From Rhodococcus rhodochrous (GTDB taxonomy: Bacteria > Actinomycetota > Actinomycetes > Mycobacteriales > Mycobacteriaceae): DNA of 64,000 nucleotides. Both the position numbers and the translations under genes were made by a program. The DNA lies in the NCBI RefSeq assembly GCF_900187265.1, contig NZ_LT906450.1, positions 2,843,444-2,907,443 on the forward strand. Direction: 5' to 3'. Shown here piece by piece: positions 30,576-59,454 of this stretch; position 1 is the first letter of the stretch, and each line of letters opens with the position of its first letter. Under the pieces are notes generated by a model. That model searched no databases, was not told where the DNA came from, and saw only the letters and a program-made list of their open reading frames with translations.

Positions 30576-30615
30576 CCTGATGCATCAGGCGCTGCGCGGC
30601 TGATGAGCTAGCCGC
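30576..30615. terminator. palindromic region between ppm1 and the pap operon
   Basis: Two symmetrical elements lie where the genes converge: a perfect 14-bp palindrome CCTGATGCATCAGG at 30576-30589 and a weak hairpin with arms GCGGCT (30596-30601) and AGCCGC (30610-30615). The second overlaps the end of the oxygenase gene. They probably end both transcripts, but the stems are short. Confidence 0.4.
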
Positions 30616-31603
30616 TGCGCGGCCACGGCCAGCGGGCGTCGAGTTCCTCCCCGAGCCCCAGGCCCGCGCACAGCCGGCGGATGGCGCTGCAGTCCTGCAC
30701 CACCGGCCGGCCCTCGGTCACGGCGATGGTGTCGGCGACCAGCTCGTCGCCGCCGGGGATGTTCTCGTGCGCGATGATCGCCGCCCAGGTGGAGGTGTCG
30801 GAGCCGGTGAACGCCGCGACCGCGGTGCCGAGCGCGTCGAGCAGCCGCACCCGATCGGTGTCGTCGAGTTCGGTGAGCACCGCGGTGAGCAGCCCACCGG
30901 CCAGCGAGGCGTGGCACAGCTCGTCGCGGCGGTGCACCGCAACCGTCGCGCGGTTGACCGGTTGCAGCTCCGGGTCGGTGGTGAGCAACGCCAGATAGGC
31001 GCTGATCGAGGTCTCCGCGACGGTGGTGAACGCCAGCTGCACCAGCGCCGCATCCCGCGGGGTCTCGGCGCGCGCGACCGCGGCGCGATGCTCCCGCACG
31101 GTCGGGCAGGGTGGCAGCACCGACTCCGGGAGCGCCCAGCCGCGGCGACGGCGGGTGAGCACGTTGGCCTGCTGGTGCATGAGGGTGTGGTACTGCTCGT
31201 CGACCATCGCCTGCAGCACCCCGGTGACCACCGTGTCGGACGGGCCGATGCCGAACGCGTCCTCGGTGATCAACGCGAAGCCGGGGTTGACGACGTGCTG
31301 TTCGATGTCGACGACGCTCTTGTTGTAGGCGATCCACGCCCAGGCCCGCAGCCGCGCCTGCCGTTGCTCGTCGAGCGCGAGATAACGCGGATGCTCGGCG
31401 AAGGGCAGCATCTGCTCGGGATAGTCGGCGCGGTCCGCCTCGAACAGCGCATCGAGATCGACCTCGGGTTTCTTCACGGCGGCGCGGCGCGGCCACGAGC
31501 GGGTCAGCCCGGCGATCACCGCGCTCTCCGCCGGATCGGACGGGTCGTATTGCGGGAGTTCCGGCGCGCGCAGCTGCGGGCCGGGGATGTCGGACTCGTT
31601 CAT
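30608..31603 (-). CDS. AurF/CmlI-type diiron arylamine N-oxygenase
   Basis: This 331-residue protein is in the AurF family of non-haem diiron enzymes, which oxidise arylamines to nitroso and nitro groups (AurF on p-aminobenzoate, CmlI in chloramphenicol synthesis). All seven expected iron ligands are visible: Glu101, Glu136 and His139 (DEQYH), Glu197 (AETSI), and His224, Glu228 and His231 (HRRDELCH). These sit within one residue of the AurF positions. It is the last gene of an operon that should make a 4-amino-phenylalanine precursor, and its start overlaps the dehydrogenase stop by 4 bp. The natural substrate is inferred to be an aminophenyl compound, free or carrier-bound. Confidence 0.85.
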   Translation of the reverse strand: MNESDIPGPQLRAPELPQYDPSDPAESAVIAGLTRSWPRRAAVKKPEVDLDALFEADRADYPEQMLPFAEHPRYLALDEQRQARLRAWAWIAYNKSVVDIEQHVVNPGFALITEDAFGIGPSDTVVTGVLQAMVDEQYHTLMHQQANVLTRRRRGWALPESVLPPCPTVREHRAAVARAETPRDAALVQLAFTTVAETSISAYLALLTTDPELQPVNRATVAVHRRDELCHASLAGGLLTAVLTELDDTDRVRLLDALGTAVAAFTGSDTSTWAAIIAHENIPGGDELVADTIAVTEGRPVVQDCSAIRRLCAGLGLGEELDARWPWPRSG

Positions 31604-58300: not shown

Positions 58301-59454
58301 TCCCGCTCACCCCGGCCGGCAAACTCGACCGCGCCGCGCTGCCCGCCCCGGACTTCACCGCCCCGGCCGGGGACTACCGGGCGCCGCGCACCGACCTCGA
58401 AAAGCTCGTCACCGACCTGTTCGCCGAGCATCTCGGCCTCGACCGGGTCGGCGTCGACGACGACTTCTTCGACCTCGGCGGCACCTCGCTGCTGGCGACC
58501 CGGTTGCTACCGGCGCTCGGGGAACGACTCGGGCGGCGCGTGCCGATCGCGTCGATCTTCACCCACCCCACCCCGGCAGACCTCGCCGCACACCTGAGCA
58601 GCGGCGACCCCGAGGCGGACAACGGCATCGACGAGGCGTTCCGGGTGCTCGTGCCGCTGCGCCCCGGTACCGGCACCGCACTGTTCTGCATCCATCCCGC
58701 CGCCGGGCTGGCCTGGCCGTACAGCACCCTCGCGCACCGCCTCGACGACGACCGGCCGGTCTACGGCCTGCAGTTGCCGGCGCTGTCCGGTGGTCCGCGG
58801 CACGACACCATCACCGCGCTGGCCCGCCACTACGTGCGGGAGATCCGCCGGGTGCAGCCGCACGGCCCGTATCACCTGCTGGGCTGGTCGCTCGGCGGGG
58901 TGGTCGCGCACGCCGTCGCCGTCGAACTGCGCCGCGCCGGGGAGATCGTCGACACCCTCGCCCTGCTCGACAGCCACCTCGTGGTCGGGGCGTCCCCGGC
59001 CGTCGGCACCCGCGACATGCTGCGCGATCTCGGTCTCCCTGTCGACGACGGCGAGCCGAGCTTCGAACACGCCGCCGCGGTGCTCGACGAGGCGTTCGGC
59101 GGCGGCACCGGATTGACCGCCGCCCACCTCGAACGGCTGCACGCCGGCTCGACCGACACCGCCCGCGCCGCGCGGCGGCACGAACCGGACACCTTCGACG
59201 GGGACGCGTTGTTCTTCACCGCGGCCCGCTCGGAGGCCCCGGTCCCGGCGGTGGCGGCCTGGCACAACGTGATCGCCGGCGAGATCCACCAGTACCGGCT
59301 CGACTGCGATCACCACGAGATGGTGAGCGCCCGGGCGGTGGAGACGATCGTCGCGGTGCTCTCGGCGCGGCTGACCGAGAGCGACGCGGCGCTGCGCCGG
59401 TGGGGACGGGTCGCGGTGCAGGTCGCCGGGCGTAACGGGGACCGCCGGAACTGA
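37399..59454 (+). CDS. six-module nonribosomal peptide synthetase with terminal thioesterase
   Basis: This is a single 7,351-residue protein. Domain order with rough residues: C1 13-430 (HHVALDG at 146), a half-condensation remnant 458-665, A1 668-1185, PCP1 (Ser1230); C2 1285-1720, A2 1735-2250, PCP2; C3 2349-2795, A3 2797-3314, PCP3; C4 3409-3855, A4 3867-4391, PCP4 with GGDSI; epimerase 4484-4960 ([15 protein letters not shown]); C5 4967-5420 of the type that follows epimerases ([10 protein letters not shown]); A5 5427-5934, PCP5; C6, A6, PCP6; thioesterase 7080-7334 (GWSLGG). Pocket residues read by eye give D-V-W-H-F-S-L-V-D for A2 (serine) and D-F-W-N-I-G-M-V-H for A4 (threonine). A1, A3, A5 and A6 share an unusual D-A-F-F start. 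The leading C domain suggests an acyl or aryl cap. Translation from 37399 follows a strong ribosome site; earlier in-frame starts are less likely. Confidence 0.93.

What the first reader, a model, noticed from the sequence alone, without database searches (positions are those of the whole stretch)
30608..59454. 4-aminophenylalanine/nitro-aryl cassette beside a six-module NRPS in a rhodococcal setting
An operon of PabA-PabB fusion, AroQ mutase, PapC-like dehydrogenase and AurF-type N-oxygenase (all seven iron ligands present) is the set known from chloramphenicol and pristinamycin precursor supply, plus amine-to-nitro oxidation. It lies about 2.3 kb from a 22-kb NRPS. Seen: the genes, their 4-8 bp couplings and the PIKGT lysine. 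Known: PapABC make 4-aminophenylpyruvate and AurF-family enzymes make nitroarenes. Inferred: the peptide contains a 4-amino- or 4-nitrophenyl unit. I know of no described rhodococcal product of this type.
Basis: partly seen in the sequence, partly recalled or inferred. Interest (0 to 1): 0.85.

Follow-up and report, generated by a model that had tools for sequence, protein, structure and literature searches.

The report
Aminophenylalanine genes beside rhodococcal humimycin-type NRPS
A set of genes that probably makes an unusual amino- or nitro-phenyl building block sits beside a giant peptide-making enzyme in almost every Rhodococcus examined, and the related enzyme in other rhodococci appears to be the one used to design the synthetic antibiotic humimycin, so the natural product may contain a building block that the design did not foresee.

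Summary
An operon, aroQ-pabAB-papC-aurF (30608-35071, minus), lies 2.3 kb from a 7351-residue, six-module NRPS (37399-59454, plus), with rbpA and a small secreted-type gene between. The seven diiron ligands (recalled) are invariant in 20 of 20 aligned oxygenases. aurF occurs in 17 of 18 same-genus genomes, and 12 of 12 complete NRPSs show X-Ser-X-Thr-X-X. The NRPS is a six-module relative of the IupU/humimycin A NRPS: in the Prescottella equi type strain a seven-module NRPS, matching humimycin A in module number, Ser2, Thr5 and, by spacing, its two epimerised positions, ends 0.5 kb from aurF of a complete operon. Of 351 family genomes, 95 have both, 9 strong aurF only, 2 the NRPS type only. 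In two Rhodococcoides-group genomes aroQ-pabAB lies beside the NRPS and papC-aurF elsewhere. Best reading: the operon supplies 4-aminophenylalanine, oxidised to nitro, to this peptide family, so humimycins may lack a real residue. Which module uses it is not shown, and one genome without papC or aurF keeps the six-module NRPS. Corynecins are an already described rhodococcal nitrophenyl product.

The parts
34691..35071 (-). aroQ / papB-like: chorismate-mutase-type enzyme, proposed 4-amino-4-deoxychorismate mutase (126 aa, GTG start)
   Evidence: CM_2 65.6 bits; NCBIfam CM-like family TIGR01803 71.3 bits, just under its cut-off 73.35
32511..34682 (-). pabAB / papA-like: fused glutamine amidotransferase and aminodeoxychorismate synthase (723 aa)
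   Evidence: GATase 158 bits, Chorismate_bind 299 bits; NCBIfam pabB TIGR00553 379.7 bits over cut-off 328.4; PIKGT motif
31600..32514 (-). papC-like: prephenate-dehydrogenase-family enzyme, proposed 4-amino-4-deoxyprephenate dehydrogenase (304 aa)
   Evidence: PDH_C 26.4 bits over cut-off; best NCBIfam prephenate dehydrogenase 101.7 bits, below cut-off
30608..31603 (-). aurF/cmlI-like diiron arylamine N-oxygenase (331 aa)
   Evidence: PF11583 160.8 bits; 5hyg 232 bits, AurF chains 151 bits; seven ligand positions invariant in 20 of 20
35331..35720 (-). rbpA, RNA polymerase-binding protein; housekeeping neighbour that marks the locus
   Evidence: RbpA 141 bits; next to the operon in 14 of 14 fetched same-genus loci
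36268..36846 (-). small secreted-type protein (192 aa from the start used here), Rv1157c-like C-terminus
   Evidence: NCBIfam NF050168 25.9 bits, far below its cut-off 70; beside the NRPS in 13 of 14 fetched same-genus loci (the other contig ends before it) and in pap-less G076
37399..59454 (+). six-module NRPS (7351 aa) with first C domain of starter type, E domain after module 4, terminal TE; codes DAFFTAAIV, DVWHFSLVD (Ser), DAFFVAGIE, DFWNIGMVH (Thr), DAFFAGAIM, DAFFLAAIM
   Evidence: Ser and Thr assignments recalled
37399..38733 (+). first C domain of the NRPS, most like C domains that take an aryl or acyl cap
   Evidence: NCBIfam MxcG 290 bits, EntF 171 bits; PDB 7c1k 216, ObiF1 208, CDA synthetase I 168, EntF 157 bits
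51200..51340 (+). epimerisation domain motif HHLAVDG of module 4 (residue 4624; approximate bounds)
   Evidence: the module 4-5 spacing is 4.7 kb against 3.2 kb for the others
58252..59451 (+). last carrier protein and thioesterase (GWSLGG at residue 7162)
   Evidence: Thioesterase 98 bits, motif
29789..30565 (+). ppm1-like glycosyltransferase; with lnt (27699-29789) marks the other side of the locus (ppm1 name recalled)
   Evidence: Glycos_transf_2 125 bits, LNT_N 108 bits; present in 12 of 14 fetched loci, the other two contigs ending before it
60644..61717 (+). methyltransferase gene after the NRPS; doubtful member, found in the stretch fetched beyond the NRPS in only 2 of 11 other same-genus genomes

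Best explanation
The four-gene operon diverts chorismate to 4-amino-4-deoxychorismate (PabAB), 4-amino-4-deoxyprephenate (AroQ) and 4-aminophenylpyruvate (PapC); a housekeeping aminotransferase gives 4-aminophenylalanine (none of the four genes is an aminotransferase). The CmlI-like oxygenase turns the arylamine into a nitro group, on the free precursor or on the finished peptide. The client is the neighbouring NRPS, a six-module member of the rhodococcal IupU/humimycin family, which makes an N-capped X-Ser-X-D-Thr-X-X peptide released by its thioesterase; at least one X would be 4-amino- or 4-nitrophenylalanine. Shown: the genes, conserved layout, module order and co-occurrence. Inferred: the substrate of each enzyme, which module takes the residue, the timing of nitration, and the cap.
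For: aurF in 17 of 18 same-genus genomes, the window's own among them (17 of 17 of those at least 90% complete); on one contig with the NRPS in 14 of 17, on different contigs in 3; same six-module order in 12 of 12 complete NRPSs, the window's included. Of 351 family genomes 95 have both a strong aurF and a starter C at E <= 1e-150, a threshold I chose after seeing the list. Linkage under 50 kb also in 13 of 14 g10 genomes (the group of P. equi) and 6 of 6 of g22. P. equi type strain: TE match ends at 292080, aurF match begins at 292624. Rhodococcoides-group G149 and G298 (the two checked): rbpA-aroQ-pabAB beside the TE end of the NRPS although papC-aurF lie about 0.94 Mb away. G042: rbpA-aroQ-pabAB-papC without an aurF match, with the NRPS type at lnt-ppm1 on another contig. 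The genome has four other chorismate-binding enzymes besides this PabAB. Lipopeptide-type NRPSs track aurF less well: of 62 genomes with that starter at E <= 1e-150, 24 have a strong aurF; none of the 34 g23 genomes among them does.
Against: No A domain was shown to take an aminophenyl residue; the window lacks the DALFVGAVV-type domain that stands where humimycin has Tyr, and its module 3 domain groups with Prescottella module 7, where humimycin has Val. G076 keeps a six-module NRPS with the same codes at modules 1, 2, 4 and 6 and has no aurF and no papC match in the whole genome. In 11 of 12 typed g24 and 6 of 6 typed g6 genomes aurF lies about 0.9 Mb or more from the NRPS, and NRPSs of other types lie nearer to it in the genomes looked at. 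Nine genomes have a strong aurF without this NRPS type, five of them in g9 (Gordonia by the named loci). The co-occurrence is confounded by common descent, and the starter-C threshold may let in paralogues.
Confidence: 0.58

Rival explanations
1. The pap-aurF genes serve another client: a corynecin/chloramphenicol-like small molecule or the large lipopeptide NRPS cluster, and their place beside the humimycin-type NRPS is an inherited neighbourhood without metabolic link.
For: Corynecins are reported from Rhodococcus sp. H-CA8f and antiSMASH calls a corynecin cluster in R. erythropolis (100%) and Prescottella R16 (40%) (PMC10819586, PMC10972888, passages). In R. erythropolis-type G097 the operon lies near ribosomal-protein genes; the first A-domain match of other NRPSs lies 8-9 kb downstream of aurF in G097 and G258. 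In R. opacus-type G230 the operon lies beside an NRPS with nine A domains. Gordonia G293 has the operon and no A-domain match in the 33 kb before and 26 kb after aurF that were fetched.
Against: No NRPS-sized frame with the reductase family PF07993 in the own genome or four other Rhodococcus genomes (best 39.9 bits, frames up to 833 aa), so canonical reductive release to a serinol was not found. The own-genome lipopeptide starter has a match over 90% identity in only 2 of 18 same-genus genomes, the own one included, and 38 of 62 genomes with this starter type lack a strong aurF. The Rhodococcoides split places aroQ-pabAB at the humimycin-type NRPS.
Confidence: 0.25
2. The NRPS takes only common residues, as predicted for humimycin (Tyr, Phe, Val, Ile), and the operon is not needed for it.
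For: Design of humimycin A as Tyr-Ser-dTyr-Phe-dThr-Val-Val (PMC12024397 Table 1); pap-less G076 has nearly the same six-module NRPS.
Against: 97 genomes carry the NRPS type and 95 of them also aurF, 96 counting G042 with aroQ-pabAB-papC only. That code-based predictors would miss 4-aminophenylalanine is my inference.
Confidence: 0.2
3. The operon makes p-aminobenzoate or another chorismate-derived acid (folate supply or an aryl cap), not 4-aminophenylalanine.
For: PabAB alone leads toward p-aminobenzoate; the first C domain resembles domains that take aryl acids.
Against: A mutase and a dehydrogenase gene are spaced by 8 bp from, or overlap, pabAB; none of the four genes is a lyase; the genome has four other chorismate-binding enzymes.
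Confidence: 0.05

Closest known systems
IupU / humimycin A NRPS locus of Prescottella (Rhodococcus) equi
   Same: First C domain 58-59% identical (G055, G161); rbpA neighbourhood; pap-aurF operon beside it; Ser at module 2, Thr before the last two modules
   Different: Seven modules and, by spacing, two E domains there; six modules and one E domain here; codes of the X modules differ. Its humimycins are synthetic predictions, and the passages and section read do not mention pap genes ('aminophenyl' does not occur in PMC5550956)
Chloramphenicol / corynecin pathway (PabAB-type synthase, CmlP, CmlI)
   Same: 4-aminophenylalanine supply genes and a CmlI-like oxygenase; 5hyg (CmlI, name recalled) is the best solved match
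   Different: CmlP is a monomodular NRPS that loads 4-aminophenylalanine (PMC7357120, passages); here six modules and a TE, and no NRPS-sized reductase frame was found
Obafluorin pathway (ObaDEF, ObaC, ObaI)
   Same: Pap-type genes, AurF-type oxygenase and an NRPS with TE in one cluster (PMC5490192, passages); first C domain similar to ObiF1
   Different: Obafluorin needs a transaldolase and has a bimodular NRPS with internal TE; here a six-module NRPS, and no transaldolase family appeared among the 39 window ORFs scanned
Pristinamycin / PapABC
   Same: Same three-step route to 4-aminophenylpyruvate (recalled; pristinamycin named in PMC5490192)
   Different: Methyltransferase there, N-oxygenase here (recalled comparison)
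Rhodococcal NRPS family linked to corynecins by Undabarrena et al. 2021
   Same: A widely spread Rhodococcus NRPS family tied to chloramphenicol-like compounds (abstract recalled; title seen)
   Different: The paper is not held, so identity with the loci here could not be checked

Membership tests
PapABC-type 4-aminophenylpyruvate pathway | PabAB, mutase and dehydrogenase encoded together | tested here: met
   the full four-gene set with aurF in 43 of 80 named loci (the best 80 of 141 confirmed), papC with aurF in 25 more, of which two are cut by contig ends
PapABC-type 4-aminophenylpyruvate pathway | Products are 4-amino intermediates | not testable with these tools
   needs enzyme assays
AurF/CmlI diiron N-oxygenase | Seven conserved iron ligands and family-level similarity | tested here: met
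   (ligand numbers recalled)
AurF/CmlI diiron N-oxygenase | NCBIfam model of 4-aminobenzoate N-oxygenase AurF (NF045603, cut-off 620) | tested here: not met
   174.7 bits; so not an AurF proper
IupU/humimycin-type NRPS | Similar first C domain and lnt-ppm1/rbpA locus | tested here: met
IupU/humimycin-type NRPS | Seven modules, Ser2, Thr5, E after modules 3 and 5 | tested here: not met
   six modules, one E; met by code and spacing in G055, G151, G161, G170
Chloramphenicol/corynecin synthetase (CmlP type) | Single module with reductive release domain (reductase recalled) | tested here: not met
   TE-terminated six-module NRPS; no NRPS-sized frame with PF07993 in G000
A domain for 4-aminophenylalanine | Known specificity code | tested here: inconclusive
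   codes extracted but no reference set of such domains was at hand

The most novel reading that the evidence does not exclude
The natural products of the whole IupU/humimycin NRPS family, a core locus of rhodococci, are capped peptides carrying 4-amino- or 4-nitrophenylalanine where sequence-based design put Tyr, Phe or Val; the synthetic humimycins are then not the natural compounds, and the window makes a six-residue variant.
Probability: 0.42. Interest if true: 0.75.

Novelty: new variant of a known kind. Interest (0 to 1): 0.62.

Why it matters
The product of a conserved rhodococcal NRPS is unknown although antibiotics were designed from its relatives. If the operon feeds it, the missing building block is named, the mass to look for is predictable, and a published design can be tested directly. 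It would also give a reason for the wide spread of the N-oxygenase and pap genes in rhodococci.

Tried and rejected
Window read as a corynecin cluster: set aside because no NRPS-sized reductase frame was found. Lipopeptide NRPS as sole client: weakened. Assigning the aminophenyl residue to a module by code or tree failed: the X modules of the humimycin-type NRPSs form one clade with moderate support (27 rows, 90/84; that tree used 136 of 197 A domains, the Rhodococcus ones from three genomes). A lead only: position 331 of module 3 is Glu in 12 of 12 Rhodococcus NRPSs and Ala in pap-less G076. Weak AurF-like matches inside frames of about 7000 residues in g6 were looked at in one locus and lie in an A-T stretch; taken as chance. 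MbtH gene: a simple motif scan of the window and five loci found none, which is no proof of absence. Rows dropped before the 2x2 count: 13 of 117 genomes with weak aurF matches only (E 2e-6 to 8e-4). Literature: humimycin with aminophenylalanine 0 papers; the 3 papers show no Rhodococcus count, and the 15 listed of 111 show no humimycin count. Only the held open library was searched.

Full report
WHAT IS THERE. The window is bases 2843444-2907443 of a 5.27-Mb single-contig genome. The operon aroQ-pabAB-papC-aurF runs on the minus strand, 35071 to 30608, with an 8-bp gap and two 4-bp overlaps. Family matches are given. The oxygenase aligns to 5hyg at 232 bits and to AurF chains at 151 bits; its seven ligand positions are invariant in 20 of 20 aligned relatives. 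The NRPS of 7351 residues starts 2.3 kb away and runs on the plus strand. It has six A and six T domains, an E domain after module 4 and a terminal TE.

SPECIFICITY. A domains in relatives were found with a profile built from the window's six A cores, and codes were read at nine pocket positions placed by motif anchors that I recalled from GrsA. Module 2 reads DVWHFSLVD (Ser) and module 4 DFWNIGMVH (Thr), assignments recalled. Modules 1, 3, 5 and 6 read DAFFTAAIV, DAFFVAGIE, DAFFAGAIM and DAFFLAAIM. The order is the same in 12 of 12 complete NRPSs of the genus, with small changes. The first C domain is nearest to MxcG and EntF models and to 7c1k, ObiF1, CDA synthetase and EntF chains, so an aryl or acyl cap is likely, its kind open.

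CONSERVATION. A search of 18 genomes of the genus, the own one included, found aurF in 17; the miss is a 75%-complete genome. Of 14 loci fetched from others, 13 show the layout aurF-papC-pabAB-aroQ-rbpA-secreted gene-NRPS and one contig ends after rbpA; ppm1 and lnt follow in 12 of the 14, the other two contigs ending before them. In one search, 14 of 17 have aurF and NRPS on one contig, 6.6-7.2 kb apart, and 3 have them on different contigs. In G007 aurF reads in two frames while its NRPS frame is whole.

LINK TO HUMIMYCIN. The NRPS beside the operon in g10 genomes G151, G161 and G170, and in G055, which matches the P. equi type-strain contig by length and position, has seven modules with Ser code at 2 and Thr code at 5, and wider spacing after modules 3 and 5 that I read as E domains; the other five modules are unassigned. 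Humimycin A is Tyr-Ser-dTyr-Phe-dThr-Val-Val (PMC12024397 Table 1). IupU is named as the humimycin A NRPS (PMC5550956 section 8, read in full) and as REQ23810 (PMC2947987 passages). From module number, the two assigned residues and the E positions I infer that this NRPS is IupU; the accession itself was not compared. In P. equi the TE match and the aurF match are 0.5 kb apart. [quoted passage not shown] the first two may be the amidohydrolase and lnt seen here, and the dehydrogenase may be PapC. Pap genes are not named in the text read.

CO-OCCURRENCE. Among 351 family genomes, typed sets give 95 with both a strong aurF and the NRPS type (starter C at E <= 1e-150), 9 aurF only, 2 NRPS type only and 245 neither; 13 genomes with weak aurF matches were counted as lacking it. 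Common descent explains part of this. More telling are rearranged cases. In G149 and G298 rbpA-aroQ-pabAB lies beside the TE end of the NRPS and papC-aurF about 0.94 Mb away. In G042 rbpA-aroQ-pabAB-papC stands without an aurF match, with the NRPS type at lnt-ppm1 on another contig, where only three A domains were found in the 12.5 kb fetched. Against this, G076 has a six-module NRPS with no rbpA or ppm1 match in the 45 kb fetched around it, no aurF and no papC match in the genome, and only a 50%-identical PabAB; in 11 of 12 typed g24 genomes the operon is far from the NRPS; Antrihabitans G058 has the two on different contigs.

OTHER CLIENTS. In R. opacus-type G230 and in G065 the operon lies beside NRPSs with nine and eight A domains, and in R. 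erythropolis-type G097 and G258 near lipopeptide-type NRPSs. Gordonia G293 has the operon without an A-domain match in the 60 kb fetched (on loci L052, L146, L147). So the cassette has more than one possible partner, and the reading given here is the best supported for the window, not proved.

PRIOR WORK. Corynecins in Rhodococcus are cited to Undabarrena et al. 2021; that paper is not held, and my recollection that it describes a widespread NRPS family with conserved arms and a variable NRPS middle is recall only. Papers were seen as listings, abstracts or passages, except section 8 of PMC5550956, section 6 of PMC11433410 and of PMC13336364, and the whole text of PMC11563203. No held paper joins humimycin with aminophenylalanine.

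VERDICT. It is a conserved six-module relative of the humimycin-type NRPS with a dedicated 4-aminophenylalanine and N-oxygenase cassette, a new variant of known kinds. The chemical claim needs the deletion and mass-spectrometry tests.

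Noticed in passing
window 1-16900: Stretch of lower GC, parts of it 96-98% identical to plasmids of R. pyridinivorans and R. rhodochrous, with arsenic-resistance, TniQ and TnsA-like features there: probably an inserted Tn7-like element.
   Followed up: partly
L020/L021 (G007:C1:2382009-2382988): aurF reads in two overlapping frames in a single-contig genome whose NRPS frame is whole; a natural break or an assembly error.
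   Followed up: partly
G000:C1:3791000-3858000 (L161-L164): Large three-frame lipopeptide-type NRPS cluster in the same genome; its starter domain has a match over 90% identity in only 2 of 18 same-genus genomes, the own one included.
   Followed up: partly
L041 (G230:C1:3137503-3157502), L042: Second, about 45% identical AurF paralogue in R. opacus-type genomes; no aroQ, pabAB or papC match in the 20 kb fetched.
   Followed up: no
L114, L115, L119, L121, L129, L130, L132, L133: Eight Streptomyces and Nocardia loci with an AurF relative beside a PabAB relative but no PapC match in the stretch held: possibly other nitroaryl pathways.
   Followed up: no
L193/L200 (G076:C34): Six-module NRPS together with the small secreted-protein gene but without rbpA or pap genes nearby, as if the two moved as a unit.
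   Followed up: partly
L107, L117, L118, L134 (Gordonia): Complete aroQ-pabAB-papC-aurF set without an A-domain match in the 10-kb flanks; client unknown.
   Followed up: partly
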